Shown here: positions 2,799 to 18,232 of the stretch, in pieces
Numbering within the stretch: position 1 is the first letter of the stretch
How the letters are laid out: the number at the start of each line of letters is the position of its first letter
DNA from: Denitrobaculum tricleocarpae
GTDB lineage: Bacteria; Pseudomonadota; Alphaproteobacteria; Kiloniellales; Kiloniellaceae
Reading direction: 5' to 3'
Assembly (NCBI RefSeq): GCF_007004665.1
Contig: NZ_ML660064.1
Location: forward strand, 1-64,000
Length of the DNA: 64,000 nt
Notes under the pieces: generated by a model
The model's input: the letters and a program-made list of their open reading frames with translations, nothing else
Told to the model about the DNA's origin: nothing
Databases searched by the model: none
Translations under genes and position numbers: made by a program

Positions 2799-2879
2799 GG
2801 TTGGCTATCACCCCTTGCCGCGGCGCTCCGGTCTTCGCGGATTCGTGGCATGACACATGAGTGTTCGTATAAGCAATTG

Positions 2880-3031: not shown

Positions 3032-3380
3032 CCGGCAGGACAGAAATCGCCGGGATGGATGCCTGAAACGGCTGGCGGCCGAGATCGGGCGCAGAGAGAA
3101 ATGAGATGCCGCCGGAGGGGTTCGGACAGCGTTGCGCAGAGCCATGCCAAACGGCAGACACACCGCCAGCGGACGTAAAAACGCGAGACGCCTGTACCAG
3201 ATCTGACGTGATTCTGACGTTTACCTCTTGAAGCGGAGCGAAGGCCGCGTCGCGGACGGGCGGGACAATTGCCCGGGGCTAGTCTGAGATCACAGGCCGA
3301 TGCGATAGGGCACGGCGAGGTCATAGCGGGGGCCGGAGCGCCTGCGATATCCCGTCGGCCCAAGATGCACGCAAGGCCGA
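3032..3380. other. Spacer between flagellin 2 control region and flagellin 3
   Basis: No gene or clear terminator is seen. The only structured piece is the second half of the enhancer region at the left end. Confidence 0.5.
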
Positions 3381-4229
3381 TTACTGCAGGAGTGACAGCA
3401 GGCTCTGGGGTAGCTGATTGGCCTGGGAAAGCGCCGAAACCGATGCCTGGACAAGGACCTGTGACGACACCAGCTTGCTCTGTTCCTCGGCAAGATCGAC
3501 ATCCATAATCGCCGAACGGGCCGCCGCCACATTCTCGAGCGCCGTGTTGATCTGCTGCCCGCGGAACTCGAAGCGCGAGAGAATGGCACCGACATTGGCA
3601 CGCGCTTCGGAAATCACGTCGATCGCCGTGTCCACTGCTGTCATGGCCGCTGTCGCCGATACCGCGGTCGATACAGCCTCGACCGAGAGCGAAAGCCCGC
3701 CCGACGTCGAGGTGGAAAAGTTCGTAATGCCGGTTCCGCCAAAGCTTGAGAAATCGACCAGAATCACATCGGTAGGGTCGGTGCCGACGAAATAGCTCTG
3801 CTGTGTGGTCGTACCGTCCAGCAGCGAGTCCCCGTTAAAACGGGTCGTGGCCGCCATGCCGTCGATTTCCGCCAGCAGGCTCTGGAACTCCGCATCGATG
3901 AAACCGCGTTCCGTGTCGGTCGGCACGCCCGAGAGCGATTGCGCGGCCAGCGCCTTCAAGCGCTGCAAAACGTCGGCGATCCGCGCCAGGCCGCCGTCGG
4001 CGACGGCCATGATCGAGCCGCCCTGGGAGGCATTGATCGCAGACTGGCGCAAAACCGTCACGTCCGAGTTCAACCTTGTGCCGATCGCCAGACCGGCAGC
4101 ATCGTCGGAAGCCTGCACGATCCGCGAGCCACTCGCGAGCTTGGACACCGATTTGCCCGACTGCATTGAGTTGTAGTTCAGAAATCTCAGGGCAGAGTTT
4201 GCTGCGGTATTTGTCGTGACTGTCGGCAT
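3381..4229 (-). CDS. fliC: Flagellin, copy 3
   Basis: Filament subunit of 282 residues, the most divergent of the three but with the same D0/D1 ends. It has NSMQSGKSVSKLASGSRIVQ in place of NAAQSGSSVSKLASGSRIVK, and a longer central insert (about residues 178-215, Ser/Thr/Gly-rich). Ser/Thr-rich central segments are the usual O-glycosylation sites in flagellins, and a sugar-modification island starts 330 bp away. The ribosome site AAGGAGATGCGGA matches the other copies, and its control region has the same three-part layout with independent base changes. Confidence 0.97.
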   Translation of the reverse strand: MPTVTTNTAANSALRFLNYNSMQSGKSVSKLASGSRIVQASDDAAGLAIGTRLNSDVTVLRQSAINASQGGSIMAVADGGLARIADVLQRLKALAAQSLSGVPTDTERGFIDAEFQSLLAEIDGMAATTRFNGDSLLDGTTTQQSYFVGTDPTDVILVDFSSFGGTGITNFSTSTSGGLSLSVEAVSTAVSATAAMTAVDTAIDVISEARANVGAILSRFEFRGQQINTALENVAAARSAIMDVDLAEEQSKLVSSQVLVQASVSALSQANQLPQSLLSLLQ

Positions 4230-4562: not shown

Positions 4563-5744
4563 CTATCCGCGCAGGGCTGCAATGACCGCGGTTTTAACCC
4601 TGTGGATGTCGTCACGGGTCATATCAATATAAAAAGGCAAGCCGATTACGCTGTCCGTCAGACCCTCCGTCACCGGCAAGGCGGTCCGTGGGCAGGAGTC
4701 AAAGGCCGGCGCCGTGGCGCAGCCGTCACCCCACCAGCGGCGGGCGGCGATCCCGCGCTGGGCAAGAGCGGCAATCAGGGTCCGGGCACTCACATCCGGC
4801 ACCGCAAAGTTAATGGTCGCCGAGACCCAGGGTTCCAGGCCGCCGGGTTGCGGCTGCAGCTCGGGGATATTCTCCAGTATTGCGTAATAAGCATCGCGCA
4901 CGTCAAGGAACCGCTGGCGCGTCGCCGGCCAATCCTCCAGCCCCGCGAGGCCGACGGCGGCGCAGTACTCGCTGAACTTGGCGTTCAGGCCGGGCAGGAG
5001 CGCAGCACGCGGCTCGGTCTTTTTTGCCGGATCGAGCGGGAAGCCGAAGCTCGAGAGACTGCGGATCTGCGAGATAAGCGCCTTATTGCGCGACAGGATC
5101 AAACCACCCTCGCCCACCCCGAAAACCTTGGTACCATGCAGGCTGATCATAACCGGCGACTGCCCGACCCGGGCCGCATCGAAGCTCGCCGCCCCGTCGA
5201 TCACGGCGGGAATCCCGGTCTCAAGGCTGAATTCATCCCAGGCGGCCACGTCGACGGGCCGCCCGAAGACCGATACCGGCATGACCGCGGCAACACGCCC
5301 CGGTGCGTTCGGCAAGCAGTCGCGCGCAAGCGCGGGCTCCAAGGCCCAGCTCCCGGGATCGACATCAACGAACCAGGGCGTCAGACCCGCCGCCATAACC
5401 GCGGACGCCGACGCGCTGAAGGTAAAGGCAGGCAGCATACAGAGATCGCCGGGCAGCGCCGCGGCCGCCTGAAGCGCCAGCGTCAGGCCCAGGGTACCGT
5501 TCGCGACCGCCAGGACAGAGCCCGCGCCGCTGCCGAACTGCGAAGACAGCCGCTCCTCGAAACGGCCGGCCAGAGGTCCGAAGTTCGAATACCAGCGGCT
5601 CGCGTCGATTTCCTCCAGATAAGGCGCGATCCGTGCCGCAGTCGGCAATTGCGGCCGCATAAGAGGTATTGGAGAGGCCGGGTTCTGTTCTACTCTTTGA
5701 AAAGAGTCTTGGATGAGATCGGATTCGCCTAATGATTGTGCCAC
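4563..5744 (-). CDS. DegT/DnrJ/EryC1-family sugar aminotransferase
   Basis: PLP-dependent enzyme of 393 residues. The family transfers an amino group to nucleotide-linked keto-sugars. The fold signature is clear: ANGTLGLTLALQAAAALPGD near 81-100, the VIDGAASFDAA motif near 181, and the Schiff-base lysine in SLHGTKVFGVGEGG (Lys206). A start at Met29 (5660) is also possible, since residues 1-28 are poorly conserved in type. It is divergent from rfbA across 153 bp, which suggests that both act on dTDP-sugars. Position and stereochemistry of amination cannot be read from sequence. Confidence 0.88.
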   Translation of the reverse strand: MAQSLGESDLIQDSFQRVEQNPASPIPLMRPQLPTAARIAPYLEEIDASRWYSNFGPLAGRFEERLSSQFGSGAGSVLAVANGTLGLTLALQAAAALPGDLCMLPAFTFSASASAVMAAGLTPWFVDVDPGSWALEPALARDCLPNAPGRVAAVMPVSVFGRPVDVAAWDEFSLETGIPAVIDGAASFDAARVGQSPVMISLHGTKVFGVGEGGLILSRNKALISQIRSLSSFGFPLDPAKKTEPRAALLPGLNAKFSEYCAAVGLAGLEDWPATRQRFLDVRDAYYAILENIPELQPQPGGLEPWVSATINFAVPDVSARTLIAALAQRGIAARRWWGDGCATAPAFDSCPRTALPVTEGLTDSVIGLPFYIDMTRDDIHRVKTAVIAALRG

Positions 5745-5897
5745 GGGATTCGCTCGGCTGGTTGTTTTTCCTGCGACGAAGAGACTGACTTTCCTCGTCT
5801 TTAAGACAGTTTTAAGCAGTAACGTTAATAATTCTACTCTATGAAAAACAAGGGACTGTTAACGCCTCGGCGTGAAACGTGCCGATAACGGGTATAT

Positions 5898-6794
5898 ATG
5901 GCCAAAGTCGATAAAGTGAGCCGCAAGGGCATTGTCCTTGCCGGAGGCTCGGGCACCCGCCTTCATCCGCTGACCGTTTCGGTCAGTAAGCAGCTTCTGC
6001 CCGTGTACGACAAACCCATGATCTATTACCCGCTTTCCAATCTGATGCTCGCGGGAATCGACGAGATCCTGATTATCACCGCGCCGGATCAGCAGGATCT
6101 GTTCCGCAACCTGCTTGGCGACGGCAGTCAGTACGGTATTCATCTGGACTATGCGGTTCAGGAGAACCCCGATGGCGTGCCACAGGCCTTCGTGATCGGC
6201 GCAGATTTTATCGGCGACGATCCGGTCACCCTGATTCTCGGCGACAACATCTTTTACGGTCAGGGACTGGTTCAGCAGCTGCGGCGGGCCGTCACCTCGA
6301 ACCACGGAGCGACGATCTTTGCCTACGTCGTGACCGACCCGGAACGCTATGGGGTCGTGACTTTCGACGATGAGGGCACCCCCATCGCCATCGCCGAAAA
6401 ACCGCGGCGCCCCCGCTCCGACTACGCGGTGACGGGCATGTACTTCTTCGACAACGACGTGGTGGAGATCGCCCGCAATCTCACCCCCTCGAAACGGGGG
6501 GAGACCGAGATCATCGATGTCATCCGCAGCTATATGAAACGCGGGGATCTCTCCGTGGAGCGTATGGGCCGCGGCATCGCCTGGCTGGACGTCGGGACGC
6601 ACGATGCGCTGGCCGAAGCAGCCGCCTACATACAGGCGGTGGATCACCGGCAGGGTTTCAAGATCGCCTGTATCGAGGAGATCGCCTGGCGCCAGCAATG
6701 GATCAGCGACGAGCAGCTGCTGTGTCTCTCCGAAAACTACGGCAACTCTCCCTACGGCGCGTACCTGGCCGGGCTGATGGAAAGCCGGCTATGA
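5898..6794 (+). CDS. rfbA: Glucose-1-phosphate thymidylyltransferase
   Basis: RmlA, which makes dTDP-glucose from dTTP and glucose 1-phosphate, the first step to dTDP-deoxysugars. Its 298 residues match the family length. The nucleotide-binding motif GIVLAGGSGTRLHPLT is at 11-26, followed by SKQLLPVYDKPMIYYPLSNLM, LGDNIFYG and EKPRRPRSDYAVTGMYFFD. It is the first gene of a plus-strand operon, and its stop overlaps the next start (ATGA). The matching rfbB lies 28.5 kb away at 35298-36407. No rfbC or rfbD is in the window, so the pathway need not end in rhamnose. Confidence 0.96.
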   Translation: MAKVDKVSRKGIVLAGGSGTRLHPLTVSVSKQLLPVYDKPMIYYPLSNLMLAGIDEILIITAPDQQDLFRNLLGDGSQYGIHLDYAVQENPDGVPQAFVIGADFIGDDPVTLILGDNIFYGQGLVQQLRRAVTSNHGATIFAYVVTDPERYGVVTFDDEGTPIAIAEKPRRPRSDYAVTGMYFFDNDVVEIARNLTPSKRGETEIIDVIRSYMKRGDLSVERMGRGIAWLDVGTHDALAEAAAYIQAVDHRQGFKIACIEEIAWRQQWISDEQLLCLSENYGNSPYGAYLAGLMESRL

Positions 6795-7471
6795 AGGACG
6801 CCGTACTGGACCGCAAAGGCAGGAAACAGGAGACCGCGCCCGGTTACCGCCGACTGGTCGAACACTACGAAAACTGCTTCGAGCGGCACGGCGCCACGCC
6901 CCAGGGAGTCGACTGGCCGGATGCGGGGGACCTCGCCACCAGGTTCGACGTCATGACCGGGGTGATCCGCCCGGACACCAAGACCTGCCGACTGCTTGAC
7001 CTGGGGTGCGGCCCGGGCCTGCTGCTCGATCACCTGAGGGACAAAGCCGCCCCTGCCCCGATCCGTTATCTGGGTATCGATCTCTCGGAAAAGATGATCG
7101 CGGCGGCCCGGCAACGGCACCCCGATGAGAGCTTCGAAGCACGCGATCTGCTCGCGGATCCGCTGAAGGAACGCTGCGTCGACTACGTGATCATGAATGG
7201 CGTGCTGACTGAAAAACGCGAACTGCCGCAAGCCGAGATGGTCGCCTTCGCGAAGGAAATCATCGCCGCGGCCTTTCATGCCGCGGAGATCGGCATCGCC
7301 TTCAACGTGATGTCGACCCAGGTCGACTGGACCCGCGACGATCTTTTCCACTGGTCCTGCGACGAGGTCCTCGGCTTCGCCGCCAGGGAGCTGACCCGTC
7401 ACGCCGTTATCCGGGCCGACTACGGTCTCTACGAATACACAACCTACCTTTACCGAAGCCCGCAAAGGTGA
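6791..7471 (+). CDS. Class I SAM-dependent methyltransferase
   Basis: 226 residues starting MKDAVLDRKG at an ATG that overlaps the rfbA stop, which implies translational coupling. An upstream in-frame ATG at 6698 lies inside rfbA and is rejected. The SAM-binding motif I is LLDLGCGPGLLLDHL (about 66-80), with the acidic motif II at YLGIDLSEKMIAAARQRHP. The substrate is unknown. Position between rfbA and a flavoprotein suggests a sugar or sugar-linked acceptor. Confidence 0.82.
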   Translation: MKDAVLDRKGRKQETAPGYRRLVEHYENCFERHGATPQGVDWPDAGDLATRFDVMTGVIRPDTKTCRLLDLGCGPGLLLDHLRDKAAPAPIRYLGIDLSEKMIAAARQRHPDESFEARDLLADPLKERCVDYVIMNGVLTEKRELPQAEMVAFAKEIIAAAFHAAEIGIAFNVMSTQVDWTRDDLFHWSCDEVLGFAARELTRHAVIRADYGLYEYTTYLYRSPQR

Positions 7472-7478
7472 AGCAGCG

Positions 7479-8870
7479 ATGAAGCAGTTCGATTTGATCA
7501 TTGTCGGCGGCTCGATCGGCTGCCTGGTCGCCGCGGCGCAGGCCGCGCGCGCGGGCAAGCAGGTCAAGCTCTTCCTGCCCGAACGCGGGGTTGGCAGCGG
7601 TTTCGGCGCCCGGCCTTTCAGGGGCCGGCGCCTGGACATCGGCACCCGGGTCTTCGACCTCAATGCCCATCCGAACGCCGCGGCCCCGGCGACGGGTCTC
7701 GACGAATACCGCGGCAACGAGGACTTTCGCCTCTACATGCCGCACATCCGGGCCTTCGTTGAAGAACTGCTCGACGGTGAATTGCAGGACCTGCCATCCG
7801 CCGAACTGTCCTACGGCGGCAAACTGGTGCCGGAGTTCCTGGCCAGCCTGGACCTCTCCAGCCTGCCGCGGCTCCTCAATGAGGACCAGATCGCGCGGAT
7901 CCGCGAAGAGACCGCGCAGATCCTCGCCCAGGAGCTGAACGGTACTCCGGTTCTGGGCCGCTCCAGCGAGCTCGATTTCACCGGACTGGACTATCAGTCA
8001 CTCTCTCTGACCAATCACGGCCGGGCATTTCACGACGCCTTCATCGCACCCTACAGCGCGAAGATCTATCCGGAGAACTGGCAGGAGGTTCCGGCCGACC
8101 TGCGCCACAAGATCTGGTCGCCGCTCTTCTACCCCAAGACCCTGAACCAGGCCTGCGACGGCCAGTTGGAACGGGGCCGGGAAACCCTGGTCTTTAGCAC
8201 CGTCAGGAATGGCGACTTCGGCGTCTTCGTGGACCGCCTGATGACCCGGATCGAAACCACGCCCGGCATCGAACTTGAGCGCACGGGCAGACTGCTCGGC
8301 CTTAGGCCACAGGGGGCCGGCCACAGCCTGACCTTCGAAGACCGCGAGGCAACCGCCGAGGCGGCGGGACAGCTGGTGCTCGGACTTTCGGTTGCCGACA
8401 TCGTGGGCCTGAACGGTCACGCGGCGGAGATCGATATGCTGAGTCTGGGTATCGCCTGGGCCGAAGTGGATGAAGCGGATATCAACAGCCTCGCCAGCTA
8501 CGTCACGGTCCACGACCCGGATAATCCCGCCTACCGCCTCTCCTTCGGCGGCAGCGGCGCGCCCGAGGGCAAACGGATCGCCAATGTGGAACTGAGCTGC
8601 CGAATCCCGCGCGAAGATTATGAAAGCAGCGTCCGCTATGCCCTGGAGCAGAGCGGCGTCTTACGCGAAGGCGCGCCCATCGAGCTGCTGGACGGCATCG
8701 CCGGCGTCCGCATTCCCGCCCCGACCCGGCAGAACCGGCGCAGCCTGGAACAGGCCAAGCAGCAGCTCGCGGATGAGGGGGTCGAAGCCGACTACATCGG
8801 CACCGCCAAAGACATGTCCCGCGACATCCTGAACCAGCACATTCTGCAGGGCCTGACGCTTGCGGCTTGA
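7479..8870 (+). CDS. FAD/NAD(P)-binding oxidoreductase of unknown substrate
   Basis: 463 residues beginning with a dinucleotide-binding beta-alpha-beta (FDLIIVGGSIGCLVAAAQAARAG) whose glycine pattern is GGSIG. The overall layout resembles amine-oxidase, UDP-galactopyranose-mutase or protoporphyrinogen-oxidase-type flavoproteins, with a mid-region SAKIYPENWQEVPADLRHKIW and a C-terminal return to the Rossmann fold. It starts 7 bases after the methyltransferase, so it belongs to the rfbA operon. A role in sugar-nucleotide oxidation or ring change is conceivable but unproven. It converges on the gene ending at 8923. Confidence 0.6.
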   Translation: MKQFDLIIVGGSIGCLVAAAQAARAGKQVKLFLPERGVGSGFGARPFRGRRLDIGTRVFDLNAHPNAAAPATGLDEYRGNEDFRLYMPHIRAFVEELLDGELQDLPSAELSYGGKLVPEFLASLDLSSLPRLLNEDQIARIREETAQILAQELNGTPVLGRSSELDFTGLDYQSLSLTNHGRAFHDAFIAPYSAKIYPENWQEVPADLRHKIWSPLFYPKTLNQACDGQLERGRETLVFSTVRNGDFGVFVDRLMTRIETTPGIELERTGRLLGLRPQGAGHSLTFEDREATAEAAGQLVLGLSVADIVGLNGHAAEIDMLSLGIAWAEVDEADINSLASYVTVHDPDNPAYRLSFGGSGAPEGKRIANVELSCRIPREDYESSVRYALEQSGVLREGAPIELLDGIAGVRIPAPTRQNRRSLEQAKQQLADEGVEADYIGTAKDMSRDILNQHILQGLTLAA

Positions 8871-8922
8871 ACGGAAACAGACAGACTTCTCGCAATCAAA
8901 TCAGATTGAGGTAAGGCCCAAC

Positions 8923-9924
8923 CTAGCGCGGTGCCCGATATGCCGGGAAGTAACCGTTCCGGTTCTGCGCATCGCAGGCATTTTCCTCGCAGAGCGCGTC
9001 GTAAGCTTGCAGATCGTAGACCTGTTTCAGGCACTGCGTCGGGGTCAGGGTGGCGCCGAAGCGGCGTTTGAATTCGCCCACGCCGTCCCCTTCCTTCACC
9101 GCACCGCCCAGATTGATCCACTCGGCACCGCGCGCCTTGGCCTCGCGCATCCCGCACCAGATCAGGCCGACGGAATGATCGCGGGCGTCCTCGGTCGCGG
9201 CGAAGAAGAGGTAATCGGCACAGGGGGCGGTGACGGCGGTCATGGAGACGGCCTCGATTTCACCGGCCTCGTTGCGCGCGCCGAAGAGAACGACCGAATC
9301 CAGCCCGGCCATCCGGCGAAGAGCATCATCACCGAAGAAATAGACGGACGCCGCGCCCAGACGTGACATATGCGGCGGGTAGAGCTTCACGAAGGCATCG
9401 ACCAGTTCGGCGCGGCCGGTCGCAACCTCGACCTCTTTCAGCCAGCGGCGCAGGCTGGGGCGGCGCCGCTTCGACATGCCGGCAATGATATCGTCCTCGC
9501 CGGGCCGTAGATCGAGGAGGTATACGGGGCTCGATTCGAAACGCTCTTCATCGGCGCCAATGGCACTGCAGGACAGGGAAGGATGCTGCGCGAGGTATCC
9601 CGCGACATATCCCCGCTCTCGGGCAAATGCCCGCCAGGCCTGGTCCAGACCGGTGAGATCGCCGACCCCGATGAAGCCACCGAAGCCGTAGGGTGTCGCG
9701 ATATCCGCGCGCGTCTCCAGAGGACGTTCCAGAACCGGGCAGACCGCTTTGCCGCGCTCGCTCTCTGCAACGAAGAGGACACACTGCGCATCGTCGCGAC
9801 CGGTGTCCAACGCCGCGCGAAAGGCCGCTTCATGGGCTATCGAATGCGGCAAGCCCTCGAGGGCTGCACTCCAGGCCGCCGGGTCTTTAAGGCCGACCAG
9901 ACGGGTTCGCATTTCCGTCGTCAT
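8923..9924 (-). CDS. FemAB/GNAT-like acyltransferase
   Basis: 333 residues with features of the FemAB branch of the GNAT fold: MSKRRRPSLRRWLKEVEVATG near 160, the substrate-side strand EIEAVSMTAVTAPCADYLFFAATEDARDHSVGLI, and EWINLGGAVKEGDGVGEFKRRFGA near the end, as in FemAB-type proteins of polysaccharide clusters. Members move acyl or aminoacyl groups onto amines. Its ATG overlaps the stop of the formyltransferase gene (ATGA), making it the last gene of that operon. It may acylate an amino sugar; the substrate is not determined. Confidence 0.65.
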   Translation of the reverse strand: MTTEMRTRLVGLKDPAAWSAALEGLPHSIAHEAAFRAALDTGRDDAQCVLFVAESERGKAVCPVLERPLETRADIATPYGFGGFIGVGDLTGLDQAWRAFARERGYVAGYLAQHPSLSCSAIGADEERFESSPVYLLDLRPGEDDIIAGMSKRRRPSLRRWLKEVEVATGRAELVDAFVKLYPPHMSRLGAASVYFFGDDALRRMAGLDSVVLFGARNEAGEIEAVSMTAVTAPCADYLFFAATEDARDHSVGLIWCGMREAKARGAEWINLGGAVKEGDGVGEFKRRFGATLTPTQCLKQVYDLQAYDALCEENACDAQNRNGYFPAYRAPR

Positions 9925-10799
9925 GCCAAACGCTCCCCCAGCGTCACCGGCGGCTCACTCCGGCACTTCAGAATATCGCCCGCGCCGCAGGCAACTTCGA
10001 ACCAGCCGCCGGCGCTGCAGGCGAGGACCTCGCCGGGCAGGGCGTCCGAAGCCCGGTGAACGGCGGACAGCCGCGCCTCTTTGACCCTGATCTCGCGGCC
10101 CTCCTGCCCCACAGCAAAGGCAGAGGGTAACGGCTCAGGCAAGGCGCGGACAAAGTTGAAAATCGAGCGTGCGCTGAGCGACCAATCGATCCTGCCGTCT
10201 TCAGGTCTACGGCGCGGGGCATAGGAACTCTCGCCTTGTTGCTGTTTTTCCTTCGGCAGCGTCCCATGTTTCTCAATGTATTCGAAGACCTCGACGGCCA
10301 ATGCAGCCGAGAGATTATCGAGATCCCCGGTCAGGCTCCACAGGTCATGGTGATCCGCGATGGAGATAGCACGAGCAGCCAGGATCCCGCCGGTGTCAAC
10401 ACCCGGATCGATCCGATGCAGCGTCACGCCGGTTTCCCGCTCGCCGTTGATCAAGACCCAGGAGACCGGATGGACACCGCGGTATGCCGGCAGCAGAGAA
10501 GAATGGATGTTGAGCGATCCAAGACGCGGCGCGCTGAAAACCTCTTCGGAGAGAAGGTTGAAGCGGCAGACCAGCAGCAGGTCGAGATCCTGCAGCCTCG
10601 CAGTCTCATCCCGCAGGTCGGAGGTTTCAAGCAGCTCGACGCCGCGCGCCGCGCACCAGCCGGCCAGTTCGGCACGGTCGCTCTCGGGCGCTTCGGGCAT
10701 AGACGCGACGAAGACCGGGACAAAGCCCCGGTCTTCGAGTGCGGTCAAAACCCGGATGGCTTGCGGCTTACATCCCGCAAAGGCCCACCGCAGGCTCAC
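9921..10799 (-). CDS. Formyltransferase of the methionyl-tRNA formyltransferase fold, probably acting on an amino sugar
   Basis: 292 residues from a GTG at 10799 that overlaps the upstream stop (GTGA). A longer form from 10832 would run 36 bases into the neighbour. The catalytic triad of N10-formyl-THF-dependent transferases is visible: Asn97 and His99 in SLNIHSSLLPAYRG, and Asp135 in IDPGVDTGGIL. The housekeeping tRNA enzyme usually sits with def, so this copy amid sugar genes suggests a nucleotide-sugar N-formyltransferase (VioF- or ArnA-N-like). The C-terminal about 90 residues may be an OB-type domain. Confidence 0.75.
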   Translation of the reverse strand: MSLRWAFAGCKPQAIRVLTALEDRGFVPVFVASMPEAPESDRAELAGWCAARGVELLETSDLRDETARLQDLDLLLVCRFNLLSEEVFSAPRLGSLNIHSSLLPAYRGVHPVSWVLINGERETGVTLHRIDPGVDTGGILAARAISIADHHDLWSLTGDLDNLSAALAVEVFEYIEKHGTLPKEKQQQGESSYAPRRRPEDGRIDWSLSARSIFNFVRALPEPLPSAFAVGQEGREIRVKEARLSAVHRASDALPGEVLACSAGGWFEVACGAGDILKCRSEPPVTLGERLA

Positions 10800-12250
10800 G
10801 CCACGTTTTTCCTTTCTTTGAACTTCTTCCATTCCCAGTCCTGGGGGAAGGTCGCGTACTGCGGCCGGATATAGTTCTCGATGCCCGGGTGCGATTTGCG
10901 GTCGAGCACTGCCTGAATATTCTTACTGTCGAGATCGACGTGGTATTCCAGCCAGAACCAGAAGCGGCCCATGTCGCGGGTGAAATCGACGTGCTGATCG
11001 GCCTGGCCGACCCACTGGATGATATTCCACATCAGCTTGCCCTGCAGGATACCTGCCCAGATGTGCTGCGGCACGTACAGGGTTTGCTGTACGGGTTCGT
11101 CATCGTCCCAGTCGAACGCAAAGCCGTCTTCGGGGCTGGCTTTCAGCACAAAACTGAAATCCGCCCTGTCGCCCTCGATGAAAAGCCGGAAGCGTGAGGT
11201 GAAATCGATGTAGTCCTTGGTCATCCACTTCTGGACGATGTCGCAGCGCCGGCGGGACCGGGCCTCCAGATCGTCCAGATCAACCTCGTGCAGCCATTCG
11301 TTCAAGGCATCGACCTTGGGCTGGAACAGGCTCTTGATCTTCTTGACCTCGCCGAGCATGTCGTCCCAATCAATCTCGGGATGGTTCCGGGTGACACCGC
11401 CGCTCATGGTCCAGGTGTCTGAAGGATAGAGCACCACCACCTCCGTGCCGCTGTCGGGGTAGTCCTGTTCGATCATTTCCCAGAAGAGCTTCAGAGTGGT
11501 CCGGTTGGCCCAGTTGTTGTGGAAGTACTTGTCGTCGAGCCAGCAGAAATCGCCGGCAAAGGGCGCGATCCGCGCGGGCGTCACAAAATCCATCAGGCGG
11601 CGCTGATCGCGGAAGGCGACCTTGCGCTTCTGCGCGGCTTCGCGCATCTCCGCTTCATCCATGCGGAAACAGCCCGGGAACATGGTCACGCCGCCGGACT
11701 GGATAAATCCGATATCGACCTTCGGCCAGCGCGCCTTGATCTCCTTGCAGAGTTCCTCGTCATTGACGTTGTCGTTCATGTTCAGGAGCGTGCAGTCGGG
11801 ATGCTCGATCACGAAGCCGCTGTTTTCCCAATCCTGGTCCCGGGTCTTGGCGGAGGGCACAACGGTAAAGGGCGTCACACCGCCAAGCTTAACGGTTTCC
11901 CAGGAATGCAGCTTCTTGATGTTGTGAAACCCGAGCTCGCGCATCACCCGCTCGACCGTCAGGGCGCGCATTCCAGGGTGTTCGTTATAGGCGGGCAGAT
12001 AGACCTGTACGTTCCGGTCGATGTAATCGATCGAGGGAATGTGAAAGTGGTCTTCGTGGGAGTGGGTGATGTAGAGGTAGTCGACGTCGCGCGCGACCTC
12101 TTCCGGTGGCACGGCGGCAGCCGGGAACTTCCAGGTGCTCAGGTTGTAGACCGGTTCGTTCAGGAACCAGGGATCGCAGAGGAAGGTTCCGAAGTCACCG
12201 CGAATTTTCAGGGTTGCGTGAGAGATGAATTCTACTTCTAGCTCGCTCAT
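10796..12250 (-). CDS. MBL-fold metallo-hydrolase/oxygenase-like protein
   Basis: 484 residues. The metal motif ITHSHEDHFHIP (His63, His65, Asp67, His68) marks a metallo-beta-lactamase fold, and NSGFVIEHPDCTLLNMNDNVND resembles the strand that carries later ligands. It is much longer than simple hydrolases, with about 200 extra C-terminal residues. The arrangement recalls the MBL part of CMP-N-acetylneuraminate hydroxylase, but no Rieske iron-sulphur motif is present. It lies in the sugar operon between a PhyH-like oxygenase and the formyltransferase. The function is unknown; the CMAH likeness is a low-certainty impression. Confidence 0.6.
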   Translation of the reverse strand: MSELEVEFISHATLKIRGDFGTFLCDPWFLNEPVYNLSTWKFPAAAVPPEEVARDVDYLYITHSHEDHFHIPSIDYIDRNVQVYLPAYNEHPGMRALTVERVMRELGFHNIKKLHSWETVKLGGVTPFTVVPSAKTRDQDWENSGFVIEHPDCTLLNMNDNVNDEELCKEIKARWPKVDIGFIQSGGVTMFPGCFRMDEAEMREAAQKRKVAFRDQRRLMDFVTPARIAPFAGDFCWLDDKYFHNNWANRTTLKLFWEMIEQDYPDSGTEVVVLYPSDTWTMSGGVTRNHPEIDWDDMLGEVKKIKSLFQPKVDALNEWLHEVDLDDLEARSRRRCDIVQKWMTKDYIDFTSRFRLFIEGDRADFSFVLKASPEDGFAFDWDDDEPVQQTLYVPQHIWAGILQGKLMWNIIQWVGQADQHVDFTRDMGRFWFWLEYHVDLDSKNIQAVLDRKSHPGIENYIRPQYATFPQDWEWKKFKERKNVA

Positions 12251-12419
12251 TGACCGAAATGTCCTTTAGAGATTGCGCACAGCCACCTCAATCTGGCTGG
12301 GTATAATGAACCGCAGGTCCGCTCCGTTATCCATTAGATAACATTCATAGTTAATAAAGGCTTACACTTAGGTCCCGCACTACAACCGCCGGTCAAAATG
12401 TCGCAACGTGAGCGGTGTT

Positions 12420-13259
12420 TCAGTCTTTGCTGCGGCCCGGTCCCGGAAAGTCCGGATGGATCAGCTTTTCCGGCGCGGCGTAAGAAAAGGGATTGATAAA
12501 AGAGCGCTCTACGAAACTGCTCTCCAGCGCGTTGTTGTAACGGAAGTTCACAGTCAAGCGCGTCCGGTCGGTTGTATTCGTTCCCGAACGATGGACGAGG
12601 AAGGACGAGAAGAACAGAACCGAGCCCAGAGGCACCTCGACCTCGACAAAGTCTTCCTCGCGCACGGCATCCCGGCTGAGCGCCAGGGGATAGTCAGCCT
12701 CGTCATCAGGCGCGAAAGGCAGGAGGCCGTCCCGATGACTGCCGGGAATGACCTGCAGGCGCCCCATCTCGGGGCTGACCTCGACAAGCGGCAGCCAGGC
12801 GACCGCGCCGTCAAGGCTGCCCTGCATGTTCGACCACTCCTGATGGGCCGGCAGGCGATGATAACGTTCCGTCTTGGCAAGACGCCGCGAATGGAACCAC
12901 ATCAGGGGACGCGCGCAGATGGCGGGAAACTCGAGCCCCAGCATCTTCAGGCTCTCCACGAGTTCGTCCGAGGTGCCCAGACGATGCAGGCTGATCAGAT
13001 GATTGCAGAGCTTTGCCGCGCCGAGATAGCCCTCGAAGTCATTCTCGAACAACCACTGCAGTGTCTCGTCCAGGCTCTCGCGGCCCCGGCCATGGTTCGA
13101 GACGTCCGCGCGGGCCGAAAAGACGGCCGCCACGTCAGCGCGCAACGCCGCCAGCTGTTCGGGCGCCAGAAGCTTCGGCAGGATCACAAACCCCTGCTCA
13201 TCGAAACGGTTACGCAGGTCCGCAAGGGCGCTGTCCGAACTATCGCAGGCCAGGGTCAT
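12420..13259 (-). CDS. Phytanoyl-CoA dioxygenase (PhyH)-family 2OG-Fe(II) oxygenase
   Basis: 279 residues, probably a non-haem iron, 2-oxoglutarate-dependent hydroxylase. The iron ligands can be placed at His139 and Glu141 (PAHQEWSNMQGS) and His223 (LVHRSGTN), with Arg234 for 2-oxoglutarate (DRTRLTVNFRY). PhyH enzymes normally have HxD, so Glu at 141 is unusual. The fold marker MGRLQVIPGSHRDGLLPF is present. Its ATG overlaps the stop of the TylF-like gene. Such enzymes hydroxylate small molecules or sugars; the substrate is unknown. Confidence 0.75.
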   Translation of the reverse strand: MTLACDSSDSALADLRNRFDEQGFVILPKLLAPEQLAALRADVAAVFSARADVSNHGRGRESLDETLQWLFENDFEGYLGAAKLCNHLISLHRLGTSDELVESLKMLGLEFPAICARPLMWFHSRRLAKTERYHRLPAHQEWSNMQGSLDGAVAWLPLVEVSPEMGRLQVIPGSHRDGLLPFAPDDEADYPLALSRDAVREEDFVEVEVPLGSVLFFSSFLVHRSGTNTTDRTRLTVNFRYNNALESSFVERSFINPFSYAAPEKLIHPDFPGPGRSKD

Positions 13260-14053
13260 CCCCCTCCCCCTTCCTTGACGAAATAGGCATAGGGCACGGT
13301 GGAGAAAGGAAATTTTTTCATTTCCGGCACGCCGCCCCTATCGGCGAAGAATTCCTCGATCGCCTCGGCCTCACCCTGCCAGGGCGGCATTCCATAGCCG
13401 TTGAACGCGACCACGCCGCCGGGCATCACCAGGGGATAAAGATGCTTGAGCCCCGCCATCGTGGGTTCGTAGAGCCCGATATCGAAGTACAGGAGGCTCA
13501 GGCGCATTCCGAGGTTCTCGGCGGCGAAACGCGGGAGCGTCTGTGAAATCTCTCCATCGATGATGCGGCAGCGCTCGACGCCGGGCAGCAGATTGTCCTG
13601 GTTGTGCAGATCGACGAGACCATGCGCCAGATCCCCGTCGGACACCATCTTTCCGAGGACGCGCTCGACCCAGGGCTGGGCATTGCCGTCGCGTTCCTCA
13701 TAGGCGGCGTAGCCTTCAAAATGATCGAAGCCGAAAACCTTGCGGGTCCGGTCGCCAGGGCAGAAGGTCTCCAGAAGGTTTGCCCAGGTGAAGAGTCCTG
13801 AGCCCCGGAATACCCCCAGTTCCGCCACCGAGCCCGGCATGTCGGCGATCAGTTTGAAGAGTTCGTAGTGGCCAAGGATTCGCGGCAGGTCGCGGCGCTG
13901 AATAAACGCAGGATAACTCTTGAGCACATCGCGGATCGAAAGGCCGGCTCCGGCGATCAGGGCTTCGAGTTTTTCCCAGTGCGCGGCGTCGCGGGCGTCG
14001 TAATCGGTCCGGACGCTGCCGCCGACGCGGTCTTGATAAGCTTGATCTGTCAT
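13256..14053 (-). CDS. TylF/MycF-like O-methyltransferase
   Basis: 265 residues with the macrocin-O-methyltransferase pattern: SVAELGVFRGSGLFTWANLLE for SAM (about 75-95), KVFGFDHFEGY, a central LSLLYFDIGLYEPTMAGLKHLYPLVMPGG, and a late YGMPPWQGEAEAIEEFF. Family members methylate sugar hydroxyls on antibiotics and polysaccharides, usually with a divalent metal. It is translationally coupled to the PhyH gene by an ATGA overlap and follows the WbqC gene after 49 bases. Confidence 0.82.
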   Translation of the reverse strand: MTDQAYQDRVGGSVRTDYDARDAAHWEKLEALIAGAGLSIRDVLKSYPAFIQRRDLPRILGHYELFKLIADMPGSVAELGVFRGSGLFTWANLLETFCPGDRTRKVFGFDHFEGYAAYEERDGNAQPWVERVLGKMVSDGDLAHGLVDLHNQDNLLPGVERCRIIDGEISQTLPRFAAENLGMRLSLLYFDIGLYEPTMAGLKHLYPLVMPGGVVAFNGYGMPPWQGEAEAIEEFFADRGGVPEMKKFPFSTVPYAYFVKEGGGG

Positions 14054-14102
14054 ACCGAAGCTTTAGCCCTCCGAGGCTTACATATGGTTAACAAAACACC
14101 AA

Positions 14103-14768
14103 TCAGGCGATGAGCGGCTTGCTTTGGCTGATGATTTCGCGGGTCAGGTTTGCGGGACCTTCGCGGCGCAGCCGGTGAAGAATGCTGCCCCAGTCCCCCT
14201 CGTAAGGCGCGAGAAACCCCAATTCGATCTCCGCGGCCCGAAAGGTCTCGGGATCATAGAGATCGCGGCCGCCAGGCGCGTTGATGTAAGAGCTGCCTTC
14301 CAGGCGTTTCACAATCTCGATGATGCGCGCCTGGCCTTTGAGCCCGACCGGCAGGTTAAGGTCGCTGGACCTCACAAACCTGGGAGCGAAGCCCAAAAGT
14401 GCGCAGGTCGTCTCGAGGTATTCCGCCAGCCAATCCCCCAGACTGCCCTCGGCTTTGAAGAGAGGCGCGACGAGCGGATGACTCCTGTCCTGAAGATCCG
14501 GAAAGCTGCGGGCCTCGGTCTCCAGGCGGCTCAAGGAATCCTGCGAAAACCGCATGGCGTTGATTGCCGTGCTCTGGGGCGCTTTTGCCAGAGGCAGAGT
14601 GAGCCAACGGACCACACCCTCGCCGTCCGGCAGCCTGTTCCGGTGAACCCAGCCGCGGCGCGGAAACTGGACGCAATCGAAAATGACAAAGATGTCGCTC
14701 GCCGCCGCCAGCCGGAAGTATCCGGCATAGGGTGCGAAGTAGGGCTGCATGACTGCGATCCGGGTCAC
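14103..14768 (-). CDS. WbqC-family protein
   Basis: 221 residues. The N-terminal block IAVMQPYFAPYAGYFRLAAASDIFVIFDCVQFPRRGWVHRNRL is the hallmark of the WbqC family, found in O-antigen and other surface-sugar clusters. The molecular activity is not well established and is not claimed here. It is the first gene of the minus-strand run WbqC, TylF, PhyH, MBL, formyltransferase, FemAB, and is separated from the OGT-like gene by 74 bases. Confidence 0.8.
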   Translation of the reverse strand: MTRIAVMQPYFAPYAGYFRLAAASDIFVIFDCVQFPRRGWVHRNRLPDGEGVVRWLTLPLAKAPQSTAINAMRFSQDSLSRLETEARSFPDLQDRSHPLVAPLFKAEGSLGDWLAEYLETTCALLGFAPRFVRSSDLNLPVGLKGQARIIEIVKRLEGSSYINAPGGRDLYDPETFRAAEIELGFLAPYEGDWGSILHRLRREGPANLTREIISQSKPLIA

Positions 14769-14842
14769 AACCGGGAATCCTTTTTACCAGGCGGCAGTTT
14801 TATCAAATGGCGGCGTCGCCGTATCCCTCGACCACGCCTGCC

Positions 14843-17287
14843 TCAACCTGCCCTATGCTTGTCGCACCAGCGCCGCCACATGTCACGATAGGCATTTTCA
14901 ACATCGCGGGTCTGTGCCACCGGATCCGTAATGCCGGTCGCCACGAACCGCTCGCGCAATCCGCCGCGCATGGCGCCCAGCTTCTCCGGGTGCTTCGCGA
15001 AGTCCACGCCCTTGGCGATGTAGTCCTCGCGGGACGATGCAATCAGGCTTTGCATACCCATGGCGTCGAGGATCGCGGAGCCGTTGCGCGAAACCCAGGT
15101 TTCGCCCTCGAGCGCCAGAAGGGGTATGCCCATGTAGAGCGCTTCGAGCGTCGTCGTTCCGCCGTTGTAGGGAAAGGGATCCAGGGCAATATCGATGGCG
15201 TCGTAGCGCTTCAGGTAGTCCTTATGCCCTGATGGCCCCTCGCAGGTAATACGTTCGGGATCAACACCGTGGGCTTCGAACGCCGCCTTGCTGGTGGCAA
15301 CCACGCTTTCGCTGCGGTAAGCATGGGCCTTTAACAACAACTTGGTGTCGGGTGCTTCACGGAGAATCCCACTCCAGGTTTCGATCGCCGTTGCCCCGAC
15401 CTTGATGCAATTGTTGAAACAGCCGAAGGTCACGTGACCGTTGCGTTCATAGGGATTGCCGGAGAGTTCGGGGACATCATCCGGAATCCTGAATGTCGTC
15501 GGGACACGCGGCAGATAGTAGACCTCTTCGCTGAAGTACTCCTTCAGCGCGGGCGGAACGTAGTTCTTCGTCGTCAGAATGTAGTCCATGTTTTTCAGGC
15601 CGGTGGTGTTGGGATAACCGATCCAACTCACCTGCACGGGGGCAGGTTTTGCCCCGAAGACCGGCAAGCGGTTGTTGCCGGTGTGCCCGGCCAGATCCAC
15701 CAGAACATCGATCCCGTCATTGACGATCTGTGTCGCGACTTCGGTATGGTTTCGGTCGACGGTCGAATACCAATGATCGAAGTAACCCTTCAAACGCTCG
15801 GTTATATGATCAGGATTGTGAACCTCGGCGTAAGCGTACAATTCGACCTGGTCCCGGTCGTGCGCCTTGAGCACTTCCTCGATGAACTTGATGACGACGT
15901 GTTGCCGGAAATCCGGTGAGACGTAACCGACTTTTAAACGGCGGTCCGGATCGGGCTGGTTGGTAAAGTTGGCTTCGTCATACGGGAGATCCCAGCGCTC
16001 ACCGTACTCGAAGTGCTGGTCTCTGCTCTCCGACAAGGAAACCTCAGGTACGTAGGTCAAGGAAAACAACTTGTTGGAATGCGCCAGACTGAACTTGGGA
16101 GCGGCAGTGATCGCGTCGTCGAAACTCTTGAGCGCCTTGTCGAGCTGGCCCAAAAGGATATAGGTCATCCCGATATTGTTGTGGGCGATGCAATCCTCCG
16201 GATCTTTCTCCAGCGCCTTAGTATAGGCCTTCAAAGCCTGTTCGTATTCCCCGTTTTCGGAGAGCGTCAAACCCATTTCACGATAGGCTTCAGATATTTC
16301 GGGAGCCAGCTTGATGGCCTTGTTCAAGGCCTGGACGGCCTCGATCCTCTTGCCCTGTGCCCTGAGAATCTTTCCCAACACACAATGAGCGGCCGAGGAG
16401 TCGGGCGCCAGTTCGATCCCTTTACGCACCTCGGCTTCGGCGCGCTCGTTATCGCCGAAAGCGTTGTAGGTCGCCGCCATGTTGTTGTGGGCGTCGCCAA
16501 AGCCCGGCTTGATTTCCGATGCCATGGCAAAACAGCTCATGGCGTTATCCAGGTAACCATCCCGCCGCCAGGCCACACCCATGTTATTGTAGGCCTCGGC
16601 GTTTCCAGGATCGAAGCTCAGAGCCTGCTCGAAGTAGGTCTTGGCATCTTCGGTTTCATGACGCTCAAGCAAAATCGCACCGATGTTCAGATGCGCATCT
16701 GCGTAGTCGGGACTAATTTCCAGAGCGTTGCGGTAGGCAGTCATCGCCACATCTTTATCGCCCTTGAGACTCGCCGCCCGTCCCAGGTTCAGGTGCGCCT
16801 GCTCCGACTCCGGAGCAAGCTTGATCAGCTTTTTGAAGACCGACGATGCCCGGTCGTACTGTTCCAGGTCCATATAGACGTTGCCCAGATTGAGGTGGGC
16901 CGGCGCAAGGTTTTTGTCACCTTTGATCGCTTGGCTATAAGCCTTGGACGCTTCCTTCAGCTTGCCCTGCTCCTGAAGAGCCACACCGAGATTGAAATGC
17001 CCCTCCGCGAACTTCGGCTGCTTCCGCAGGGCTTTCGTGAGGTACTCCGCCGCAGCATCATTCACACCGTTCTGCAAATAGAGAACGCCCAGGTAATACA
17101 GCGCGTCGATCTGCCCGGGAGAAATCGCGAGAGCCTGCTGGTAGAGACTCTCCGCCTCCCGGATCCGGCCCGCGTGATGATGATCGAAGGCCAGCTCTAT
17201 CGACTGCCTGGCGAGATCCCCGCGCGCGGGGGTTCCATTGCCACCTGCCGGCGGCACGGCCGCTGCACCCTGAAATTTTCCGGCCAT
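14843..17287 (-). CDS. TPR-containing O-linked glycosyltransferase (OGT/GT41-like, FlmG-like)
   Basis: 814 residues. About ten or more 34-residue TPR units span roughly residues 25-410 (e.g. AYNNMGVAWRRDGYLDNAMSCF, AHNNMAATYNAFGDNERAE). A GT41-type catalytic region follows, with RLKVGYVSPDFRQHVVIKF, VQVSWIGYPNTTGLKNMDYI, NCIKVGATAIETWSGILREAP and LDPFPYNGGTTTLEALYMGIP. TPRs bind protein acceptors and the C-terminus transfers sugar to Ser/Thr. Caulobacter FlmG, a TPR-glycosyltransferase, modifies flagellin. With flagellins and fliS on either side, this is the likely flagellin transferase. Start 17287 has GAGGG upstream; an in-frame ATG at 17356 is less likely. Confidence 0.88.
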   Translation of the reverse strand: MAGKFQGAAAVPPAGGNGTPARGDLARQSIELAFDHHHAGRIREAESLYQQALAISPGQIDALYYLGVLYLQNGVNDAAAEYLTKALRKQPKFAEGHFNLGVALQEQGKLKEASKAYSQAIKGDKNLAPAHLNLGNVYMDLEQYDRASSVFKKLIKLAPESEQAHLNLGRAASLKGDKDVAMTAYRNALEISPDYADAHLNIGAILLERHETEDAKTYFEQALSFDPGNAEAYNNMGVAWRRDGYLDNAMSCFAMASEIKPGFGDAHNNMAATYNAFGDNERAEAEVRKGIELAPDSSAAHCVLGKILRAQGKRIEAVQALNKAIKLAPEISEAYREMGLTLSENGEYEQALKAYTKALEKDPEDCIAHNNIGMTYILLGQLDKALKSFDDAITAAPKFSLAHSNKLFSLTYVPEVSLSESRDQHFEYGERWDLPYDEANFTNQPDPDRRLKVGYVSPDFRQHVVIKFIEEVLKAHDRDQVELYAYAEVHNPDHITERLKGYFDHWYSTVDRNHTEVATQIVNDGIDVLVDLAGHTGNNRLPVFGAKPAPVQVSWIGYPNTTGLKNMDYILTTKNYVPPALKEYFSEEVYYLPRVPTTFRIPDDVPELSGNPYERNGHVTFGCFNNCIKVGATAIETWSGILREAPDTKLLLKAHAYRSESVVATSKAAFEAHGVDPERITCEGPSGHKDYLKRYDAIDIALDPFPYNGGTTTLEALYMGIPLLALEGETWVSRNGSAILDAMGMQSLIASSREDYIAKGVDFAKHPEKLGAMRGGLRERFVATGITDPVAQTRDVENAYRDMWRRWCDKHRAG

Positions 17288-17622
17288 TAAGCCCTCTTTA
17301 CGGATAAATCGTGTTGCTTTTCTGCCCATGCGAAGCAGCGGATGCCAGAAGGACATGCCAGCGTCTTTGCAATGATGGTGAAGAGAGTTTGACCAAACAG
17401 AGTTAATGAACGCTTTACCTGCGGTGGGTTGTGGCGCTGATAGTGCCCTTCACGCCTCTCCCGGAACCAGGACATGCGGTTTCCGCCCTGCCCGGTCCCT
17501 TGCGGAAATTTTTACCCCGAGGTCAGGCGCAGCTAGGAAAAGTCCGCCTACCTGCTTGGGTTTTCACGCCCAAAATCATAAATTATATATAAAATACAAT
17601 GAGTTATGTTTTTCTCGAATTT
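17288..17622. other. Divergent control region between OGT-like gene and fliS
   Basis: No gene is seen. Read on the minus strand at 17518-17509, a GGGGTAAAAA block lies about 105 bp upstream of the fliS sigma-54 promoter, the place and orientation of the GTAAAAAC block at flagellin 3. The adjacent CCGGGCAGGGCGG is at best a degenerate FlbD box. The segment 17578-17605 is very AT-rich. Confidence 0.4.
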
Positions 17623-17638
17623 TGGCCCGCCCTTTGCA
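17623..17638 (+). promoter_or_regulatory. Sigma-54 promoter of fliS operon
   Basis: TTGGCCCGCCCTTTGCA, with GG (17624-17625) and GC (17636-17637) separated by ten bases and TTTGC at -12. It lies about 150 bases before fliS. Confidence 0.82.
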
Positions 17639-17773
17639 AAGACTTGGCCGAACCAATCCGTCCCTGTATCGGCGCAGTACTTCGCCGGGACCATACGAGG
17701 AGGTATCGGAGGACCCTGCAGATCCGATCGGCAGATCAGATCAGCGGGTCCGACACAAGAATGGAGTAAAGCA

Positions 17774-18232
17774 ATGGCACTACCCGCTGCTCATACAGAC
17801 TACGGCGAGATGATGGAATCCCGCCCTGGCCGCGCCATGGTCGAATTGCACGACGAAGCAATCACGGCCCTCCTGGCTGCGGTTGAAGCCATCGGCGCGC
17901 AGAAGATCGAGGAACGCTTCAACGAAACCGCGGCGGCCATGCAGGCCGTCACTGCCCTCTACACCATGATCGATCAGACCAATGGTGGCGAGCTCGCGGT
18001 CAATCTGGGACGCATCTACCACGATGTGCTCACCAAGCTCGGCCGGATTTCCTTCGACAGCGATCCGGCAAGGCTTGCCGGGGAATCGATCGATCTCCTG
18101 AAGCCCCTGCGCGATGCCTGGGACGGCCTGGACCGGCGCGAGGCCGGTGAAGAGGAACCCGTTGCCCCGGTACGGAAGGTTATCTCGGGCGCAAAAGCAA
18201 GTGCAGTCCAGTCGCAAGCCGGTCACCTGTGA
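17774..18232 (+). CDS. fliS: Flagellin export chaperone FliS
   Basis: 152 residues, all-helical in appearance. FliS binds the flagellin C-terminus in the cytoplasm and hands it to the export gate. The family pattern shows as MVELHDEAITALLAAVEAIGAQ, then FNETAAAMQAVTALYTMIDQTNGGELAVNLGRIYHDVLTKL, matching the LY..AI...L and GGE.A.NL..LY..... blocks of FliS. The ATG at 17774 is chosen because GGAG precedes it by 7 bases; a longer frame from 17606 would start before the sigma-54 promoter. It likely serves the three flagellins at the left of the window. Confidence 0.82.
   Translation: MALPAAHTDYGEMMESRPGRAMVELHDEAITALLAAVEAIGAQKIEERFNETAAAMQAVTALYTMIDQTNGGELAVNLGRIYHDVLTKLGRISFDSDPARLAGESIDLLKPLRDAWDGLDRREAGEEEPVAPVRKVISGAKASAVQSQAGHL

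What the first reader, a model, noticed from the sequence alone, without database searches (positions are those of the whole stretch)
4563..17287. Flagellin-linked sugar island that points to a formylated amino-deoxysugar rather than pseudaminic acid
The island is bounded by the flagellins and by fliS. It encodes RmlA, a DegT aminotransferase, a formyltransferase with the Asn-His-Asp triad, a FemAB-like acyltransferase, two methyltransferases, WbqC, two possible oxygenases or hydrolases, a flavoprotein and a TPR-GT41 transferase like Caulobacter FlmG. RmlB lies in the flagellar block at 35298. No Pse/Neu genes (dehydratase, NeuB, CMP-transferase) are present. Established: RmlA and RmlB give dTDP-4-keto-6-deoxyglucose, and DegT enzymes plus formyltransferases give formamido sugars. 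Inference: the filament carries a dTDP-derived N-formylated, possibly O-methylated sugar attached by the OGT-like enzyme.
Basis: partly seen in the sequence, partly recalled or inferred. Interest (0 to 1): 0.78.

Follow-up and report, generated by a model that had tools for sequence, protein, structure and literature searches.

The report
Flagellin amino-sugar island with formyltransferase
Beside its flagellin genes this marine bacterium carries a gene cassette that most likely builds a modified amino sugar, apparently with a formyl-capped side group, for a protein glycosyltransferase to hang on the flagellum; relatives keep the sugar core but swap the side-group enzymes.

Summary
The gene content is confirmed, but the statement about pseudaminic acid (Pse) holds only for the window: the genome encodes PseB, PseC, PseI and PseF on two other contigs. 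The dTDP reading nevertheless survives. The island's RmlA is the only RfbA-type enzyme found. The genome has no detectable RmlC or FdtA. RmlB lies about 18 kb from the GT41 in 4 of 4 genus genomes. In the family, 12 of 23 genomes carry a GT41 of this kind; 8 of these 12 have both DegT and RmlA near it, and 5 of the 12 have no NeuB-family synthase. So a dTDP-4-amino-4,6-dideoxyhexose is the likelier donor.

'Formylated' is plausible but less specific. The formyltransferase keeps the Asn-His-Asp residues but is ArnA/Fmt-like, not VioF-like, and occurs in 2 of 12 islands. GNAT or PerB-like acetyltransferases stand in others. It travels with a FemAB-like acyltransferase and a metallo-beta-lactamase-fold protein resembling CmlA/FrsH diiron hydroxylases (hydrolases match nearly as well). 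This suggests a formylated, possibly hydroxylated aminoacyl group rather than plain formamido. Verdict: partly supported; a new variant of modular flagellin-glycan islands.

The parts
714..4229 (-). three tandem flagellins; likely acceptors, with Ser/Thr-rich central regions (16 of 54, 14 of 53 and 19 of 59 residues)
   Evidence: ORFs; Ser/Thr counts
4563..5744 (-). DegT/DnrJ/EryC1 aminotransferase, probably C4-specific on dTDP-4-keto-6-deoxyglucose
   Evidence: PF01041 197.9 bits; nearest solved chains 3ju7 and 2po3, lysine of the HxTK stretch conserved in both alignments; island DegTs group apart from PseC
5898..6794 (+). RmlA, glucose-1-phosphate thymidylyltransferase
   Evidence: TIGR01207 453.6 bits over cut-off 360.65; only such enzyme among 5 PF00483 hits in the genome
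6794..7471 (+). class I SAM methyltransferase (start not settled; the ORF opens at 6698)
   Evidence: PF13649 46.4 bits; homologues in G001 and G103
7479..8870 (+). FAD/NAD-binding protein of unclear subfamily; amine oxidase/renalase, protoporphyrinogen oxidase or UDP-galactopyranose mutase (UGM) like
8923..9924 (-). FemAB-like acyltransferase, possibly aminoacyl-tRNA-dependent
   Evidence: PF02388 27.8 bits over cut-off 24, PF13480 24.5 over 22; profile hit to aminoacyl-tRNA-dependent peptide synthase 9wqy E 2.3e-7
9921..10832 (-). formyltransferase with C-terminal Fmt/ArnA-type domain
   Evidence: PF00551 81.0 and PF02911 48.7 bits; ArnA best in PDB; N108, H110, D146 invariant in 5 aligned sequences
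10796..12250 (-). MBL-fold protein with HxHxDH motif and C-terminal domain; candidate diiron oxygenase, hydrolase not excluded
12420..13259 (-). PhyH-family Fe(II)/2-oxoglutarate dioxygenase
   Evidence: PF05721 69.3 bits
13256..14053 (-). TylF-type O-methyltransferase
   Evidence: PF05711 50.1 bits
14103..14768 (-). WbqC-like protein
   Evidence: PF08889 125.5 bits; homologue found in 11 of 12 family islands
14843..17356 (-). TPR plus GT41 (O-GlcNAc-transferase-like) protein, FlmG-like architecture
   Evidence: PF13844 172.7 bits and TPR models; matches in 12 of 23 family genomes, window's included
17606..18232 (+). FliS, flagellin chaperone bounding the island
   Evidence: PF02561 55.4 bits
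35298..36407 (-). RmlB, dTDP-glucose 4,6-dehydratase, outside the island in the flagellar block
   Evidence: TIGR01181 436.1 bits over cut-off 365.1; about 18 kb from the GT41 in 4 of 4 genus genomes, one copy in the genome at E 1e-60

Best explanation
The locus is a modular flagellin-glycosylation island. RmlA and RmlB make dTDP-4-keto-6-deoxyglucose, and the island DegT aminates C4 to give a dTDP-4-amino-4,6-dideoxyhexose (Qui4N or Fuc4N type). A swappable set of enzymes decorates the C4 amine and the ring: here FemAB-like, formyltransferase, MBL-fold, PhyH, two methyltransferases, flavoprotein and WbqC, giving a formyl-containing N-acyl group and O-methylation. The TPR-GT41 protein then transfers the finished sugar to Ser/Thr of the flagellins in the cytoplasm. 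Shown by sequence and comparison: the families, their synteny, no detectable RmlC or FdtA, and different acyl enzymes at the same place in relatives. Inferred: every substrate, C4 regiochemistry, the exact acyl group, and flagellin as acceptor.
For: RmlA and RmlB over curated cut-offs; the other four PF00483 members are GMP_PMI, GalU, MurU-like and GlmU. No PF00908 (RmlC; control rings in 11 of 14) and no PF05523 (FdtA; control rings in only 1 of 14) in the genome. RmlB-GT41 spacing conserved in 4 of 4 genus genomes. DegT and RmlA both near the GT41 in 8 of 12 family genomes, DegT in 9, RmlA in 9. Five of these 12 (G008, G009, G012, G013, G014; 97-100% complete) have no NeuB family member; one of them, G009, has DegT, RmlA, GT41 and flagellins together. 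Eleven island or cassette DegTs are split from PseC and two others with support 100/99. Acyl enzymes differ: GNAT in G002, G003 and G007, PerB/PglD-like in G008 and G011. In G332 RmlB and RmlA lie directly in the cassette.
Against: The genome also holds PseB, PseC, PseI and PseF, and all four genus genomes have a NeuB-family gene. The formyltransferase is in only 2 of 12 islands. In L008 and L068 the MBL-formyltransferase-FemAB trio stands with a GT41-like protein but with no RmlA or DegT match within the roughly 20 kb read. Family GT41s outside the genus are only 27-34% identical. The DegT tree has long branches and only a drawing root. DegT is far below the DesI cut-off. No glycopeptide data exist in what I saw.
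Confidence: 0.62

Rival explanations
1. Plain reading of the first reader: the formyltransferase puts a formyl directly on the C4 amine (dTDP-Qui4NFo type), and the other enzymes act elsewhere on the sugar. (This is a finer choice inside the best explanation, so the odds overlap.)
For: Formyltransferase with the expected residues in an island with a DegT; ArnA and a GDP-4-amino-4,6-dideoxymannose formyltransferase are among its better PDB matches. Genes of acetyltransferase type replace it in relatives.
Against: Far from the VioF-type model (34.0 bits, cut-off 238). It does not explain why FemAB-like and CmlA/FrsH-like genes stand with it in 5 of 6 alphaproteobacterial MBL loci.
Confidence: 0.3
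2. The flagellin carries pseudaminic acid made by the Pse genes on contigs 1 and 2, transferred by the GT41 as in Caulobacter; the island makes something else.
For: PseB, PseC, PseI, PseF over cut-offs; a NeuB-family gene in 4 of 4 genus genomes; FlmG of Caulobacter uses Pse (PMC7591256, passages read).
Against: PseB/PseC sit among glycosyltransferase-like genes (by reading ORF starts) and an ABC transporter, and G002 has an apparent Pse set in a locus with flanking genes like those of G000's PseB/PseC cluster (by reading ORF starts). Five of 12 family genomes with a GT41 of this kind have no NeuB family gene. RmlA and DegT stay with the GT41 instead. PseG was not tested.
Confidence: 0.12
3. 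The island sugar goes to lipopolysaccharide, capsule or another protein, and its place beside flagellin is incidental.
For: Much of the same cassette exists without flagellins in L007 and G332, with a Glyco_trans_1_2 protein instead of GT41.
Against: Flagellin matches lie in the stretches read around the GT41 in 11 of 12 family genomes (G013 only as a 31-residue piece at its contig end; none in G008, whose contig starts there); FliS bounds the island in 4 of 4 genus genomes.
Confidence: 0.08

Closest known systems
FlmG flagellin O-glycosyltransferase system of Caulobacter (PMC7591256; search listing and passages seen)
   Same: TPR plus OGT-like cytoplasmic transferase serving several flagellins
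   Different: Caulobacter FlmG uses pseudaminic acid; here dTDP-sugar genes stand beside the transferase and 5 of 12 family genomes with such a GT41 lack NeuB
Viosamine island of Pseudomonas syringae pv. tabaci (PMC3927599; passages seen)
   Same: dTDP-4-amino-4,6-dideoxyglucose route with N-acylation and O-methylation for flagellin
   Different: There the sugar caps rhamnose and the acyl chain comes with acyl-carrier-type genes; here no RmlC was found and formyltransferase, FemAB-like and MBL-fold genes stand instead
Flagellin glycosylation islands with formyltransferases in Enterobacteriaceae (PMC4875605) and Geobacillus (PMC5109656, which also cites Alteromonas); passages seen
   Same: Formyltransferase in a variable flagellin island; in Geobacillus PSS1 it stands in place of the acetyltransferase FdtC
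   Different: PSS1 has FdtA and FdtB (3-amino route, as I read it); here no FdtA, and the formyltransferase stands with FemAB-like and MBL-fold genes
Dickeya dadantii flagellin cluster (PMC6637903; passages seen)
   Same: O-GlcNAc-transferase gene with a predicted nucleotide-sugar transaminase and methyltransferase between fliA and fliC; flagellin mass drops in two glycosyltransferase mutants
   Different: No formyltransferase, FemAB or MBL-fold gene among the six genes named in the passages

Membership tests
dTDP-4-keto-6-deoxyglucose route (RmlA, RmlB) | both enzymes reach the curated equivalog cut-offs | tested here: met
   TIGR01207 453.6 vs 360.65; TIGR01181 436.1 vs 365.1
dTDP-L-rhamnose route | RmlC present in the genome | tested here: not met
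   PF00908 none, control rings in 11 of 14
3-amino-3,6-dideoxyhexose route (Fdt/Qdt) | 3,4-ketoisomerase FdtA present | tested here: not met
   PF05523 none; the control rings in only 1 of 14, so a weak test
C4 aminotransferase (DesI/VioA type) | PLP lysine in the HxTK stretch | tested here: met
   alignments to 3ju7 and 2po3
C4 aminotransferase (DesI/VioA type) | curated DesI equivalog cut-off | tested here: not met
   TIGR04427 151.1 bits vs 650, though the best-scoring model
Sugar N-formyltransferase | formyltransferase domain with Asn-His-Asp | tested here: met
   PF00551 81.0 bits; N108, H110, D146 invariant in 5 of 5 aligned
VioF (dTDP-Qui4N formyltransferase) | curated cut-off of NF005755 | tested here: not met
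   34.0 bits vs 238
FlmG-type flagellin glycosyltransferase | N-terminal TPR, C-terminal GT41, near flagellins | tested here: met
FlmG-type flagellin glycosyltransferase | pseudaminic acid as donor | not testable with these tools
   Pse genes exist elsewhere in the genome, but 5 of 12 family genomes with such a GT41 lack NeuB
Pse flagellin glycosylation locus | PseB, C, I, F in the flagellar locus | tested here: not met
   they lie on contigs 1 and 2; the window is on contig 13
CmlA/FrsH MBL-fold diiron monooxygenase | MBL fold with HxHxDH | tested here: met
   motif at 63-68, invariant in 5 of 5 aligned. Hydrolases share these features
CmlA/FrsH MBL-fold diiron monooxygenase | diiron ligand set with an equivalent of Glu377 (residue named in the title of 5kil) | tested here: inconclusive
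   E142 and D160 invariant, but spacing does not fix E142 to Glu377; model pLDDT 60.8
FemAB aminoacyltransferase | Pfam FemAB over cut-off | tested here: met
   PF02388 27.8 vs 24, residues 228-292 only
FemAB aminoacyltransferase | aminoacyl-tRNA as donor | not testable with these tools
   similarity to 9wqy only
UDP-galactopyranose mutase (for the flavoprotein) | fold and FAD site of UGM | tested here: inconclusive

The most novel reading that the evidence does not exclude
The sugar's C4 amine is not formylated directly but aminoacylated by the FemAB-like enzyme. The aminoacyl group is hydroxylated by the MBL-fold (CmlA/FrsH-like) and/or PhyH oxygenase, and its amine is capped by the formyltransferase, giving an N-formyl-(hydroxy)aminoacyl-amido-dideoxyhexose on flagellin: a tRNA-linked, oxygenase-tailored acyl group on a protein glycan. 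The trio MBL, FemAB and formyltransferase occurs together in 5 of the 6 alphaproteobacterial MBL loci, and all three belong to families that include amino-acid-directed enzymes (for Fmt by recall).
Probability: 0.35. Interest if true: 0.75.

Novelty: new variant of a known kind. Interest (0 to 1): 0.52.

Why it matters
If right, the OGT-like flagellin glycosyltransferases of Alphaproteobacteria are not tied to pseudaminic acid: relatives use dTDP-amino sugars and vary the filament surface by changing acyl-group enzymes at a fixed locus. The Caulobacter paper asks whether FlmG can accept other nonulosonic or sialic-acid-like donors (PMC7591256, passage read); a GT41 standing with a dTDP-sugar cassette, also in genomes without NeuB, widens that question and makes it directly testable. 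The MBL-FemAB-formyltransferase trio is a candidate for an unstudied sugar-acyl chemistry.

Tried and rejected
Rejected: canonical rhamnose route (no RmlC); 3-amino route (no FdtA, weak control); VioF identity of the formyltransferase; foreign base composition of the island (G+C 0.61 against 0.604 for the window). Recent transfer of the cassette between G000 and G001 was looked for and not seen: fourfold-site identity of the eight cassette genes MT1 to WbqC (41-58%) is like that of FliS, FlgD, FlgE, FliF and RmlB (41-54%). Against the closer G003 the border genes DegT, RmlA and GT41 (50-57%) fall below FliS, FlgD and RmlB (69-76%), which would fit exchange of the block, but FlgE (53%) and the flagellin compared (47%) are low too, so this is not pressed.

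Led nowhere: plasmid search for the MBL protein (no match); PF01973 as a test for bacterial Maf (no hit, but that model is now MptE-like and rings only in the four archaeal controls, so inconclusive); literature searches for WbqC with flagellin and glycosylation (0 papers) and Pelagibius with flagellin (0 papers); flavoprotein model too poor. The MBL profile matched YejA nearly as well (E 7e-5) as CmlA (E 4.8e-5) in another part of the protein; I take the YejA match as chance, which also warns against leaning on the CmlA value alone.

Not done: PseG search; tree of formyltransferases against named references; a domain search of every gene of the Pse and polysaccharide loci. CMP-Neu5Ac hydroxylase was thought of as a relative of the MBL protein from recall only and was not tested.

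Scope of comparison: 23 family genomes, of which the 12 with a GT41 were read in part (G013 7.2 kb only; G008 and G014 at contig ends); 385 class genomes, drawn evenly from a larger group, for the MBL profile, 3 with a match including our own; in genome contigs 8 stretches matched a pattern, 4 confirmed. Six papers were opened, for passages only.


Full report
What is there. The window is bases 1-64000 of contig 13 of a 6.44 Mb genome in 34 contigs. RmlA and RmlB pass curated equivalog cut-offs.

Correction to the observation. The genome is not free of nonulosonic genes. A PseI (484.7 bits, cut-off 340.25) and PseF (282.6, cut-off 205.7) lie on contig 2 near 582-584 kb, with a PseH-like GNAT below its cut-off. 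PseB (545.9, cut-off 407.75) and PseC (489.5, cut-off 423.5) lie on contig 1 near 751-755 kb, beside an ABC transporter and glycosyltransferase-like frames that I recognised only by their ORF starts. PseG was not looked for.

Comparative test. In the family (23 genomes held), 12 carry a GT41 of this kind at E 1e-60 or better. I read stretches around it in all 12 and searched them with island proteins. DegT was found in 9 of 12, RmlA in 9 of 12, both in 8 of 12 and WbqC in 11 of 12; flagellin matches in 11 of 12. G013 offers only 7.2 kb, and G008 and G014 end beside the island. G008 shows only broken-looking RmlA pieces. The formyltransferase, FemAB, MBL and flavoprotein genes occur in 2 of 12 (G000, G001). 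NeuB-family genes are absent from 5 of these 12 genomes (G008, G009, G012, G013, G014, control rings in 9 of 14). G009 combines no NeuB with DegT, RmlA, GT41 and flagellins. A nonulosonic donor is therefore not needed by this transferase family here, while the dTDP-amino-sugar genes follow it. Against this, all four genus genomes, including ours, do have a NeuB-family gene, and the GT41s outside the genus are distant (27-34% identical).

Which sugar. The island RmlA is the only one of five PF00483 members in the genome that is RfbA-like; the others are GMP_PMI, GalU, MurU-like and GlmU. PF00908 (RmlC) gives no match, with the control ringing in 11 of 14 genomes, so the dTDP-4-keto sugar is not for canonical rhamnose. 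PF05523 (FdtA) gives none either, though its control rings in only one genome. DegT is best matched by the DesI model, far below its cut-off, and aligns with 3ju7 and 2po3 with the lysine kept; that 2po3 is DesI is recalled. In a tree of 16 rows, eleven island and cassette DegTs are split (100/99) from three PseC, another DegT of the genome and the Nitrospira one; the root is for drawing only and the tool warns of long branches. RmlB stands about 18 kb from the GT41 in all four genus genomes. In G332, of another family, RmlB, RmlA, flavoprotein, FemAB, formyltransferase, MBL, PhyH, a glycosyltransferase, WbqC, TylF and DegT stand in one block with no flagellin match in the stretch read. C4 amination of dTDP-4-keto-6-deoxyglucose is the simplest reading; gluco or galacto configuration is open.

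Known ground. Formyltransferases in flagellin islands are in print: nine enterobacterial strains (PMC4875605, passage) and Geobacillus, where fmt3 stands in place of fdtC, with a citation to Alteromonas (PMC5109656, passage). A dTDP-viosamine derivative on flagellin is described in Pseudomonas syringae (PMC3927599, passages), and a cluster with an O-GlcNAc-transferase gene and a predicted transaminase is tied to flagellin glycosylation in Dickeya (PMC6637903, passages). What I did not find in the listings of searches is a GT41 flagellin island with a dTDP-amino-sugar cassette of this make-up; the library is limited to open papers, most listed papers were not opened, and searches listed 2 of 3 and 10 of 13.

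Verdict. Observation partly confirmed, interpretation partly supported. The core claim, a dTDP-4-amino sugar rather than pseudaminic acid on the filament, I put at about 0.6; the exact formylated group remains open.

Noticed in passing
L012:3116-5050 (contig 2, about 586-588 kb): Beside PseI/PseF, one reading frame joins a NAD-dependent epimerase domain with a PylC-like/ATP-grasp domain; two methyltransferase-like frames, a GNAT and an HAD-family gene stand with it.
   Followed up: partly
L036:5742-6566 and 7600-8424 (contig 1): Two 274-aa frames start identically and each follows PseC sequence, the second only a 3' piece of it: a tandem duplication by its looks.
   Followed up: no
L052:8706-15155 (G001): In Pelagibius sp. 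Alg239-R121 an ABC-transporter-like set and a regulator-like gene sit between the flavoprotein and FemAB genes of the island (by reading ORF starts).
   Followed up: no
L008:8700-21100: MBL, formyltransferase, a FemAB-like frame and a GT41 protein stand near an ABC transporter, PqqD, an asparagine-synthase-like gene and a Phage Tail Collar protein with two similar-looking frames: another possible glycosylation target.
   Followed up: partly
L063 near 10700-11560 (G008): RmlA matches only in weak pieces with no long frame between the PerB-like gene and the next gene; looks degenerate. Left as found.
   Followed up: no
L056:9579-11521 and homologues: Paired GH130/GH43-like genes accompany the GNAT cassette in G002, G003 and G007 and, without the GNAT match, stand in G009, G012 and G014; weak matches in G008 and G011 (one of the pair searched in Pfam). 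Their role is untested.
   Followed up: partly
window 10796-12250, MBL protein: The model of the MBL protein also drew a sterol-carrier-protein-2 match (3bn8, Foldseek E 2.1e-4, 115 columns), presumably from its C-terminal part.
   Followed up: no
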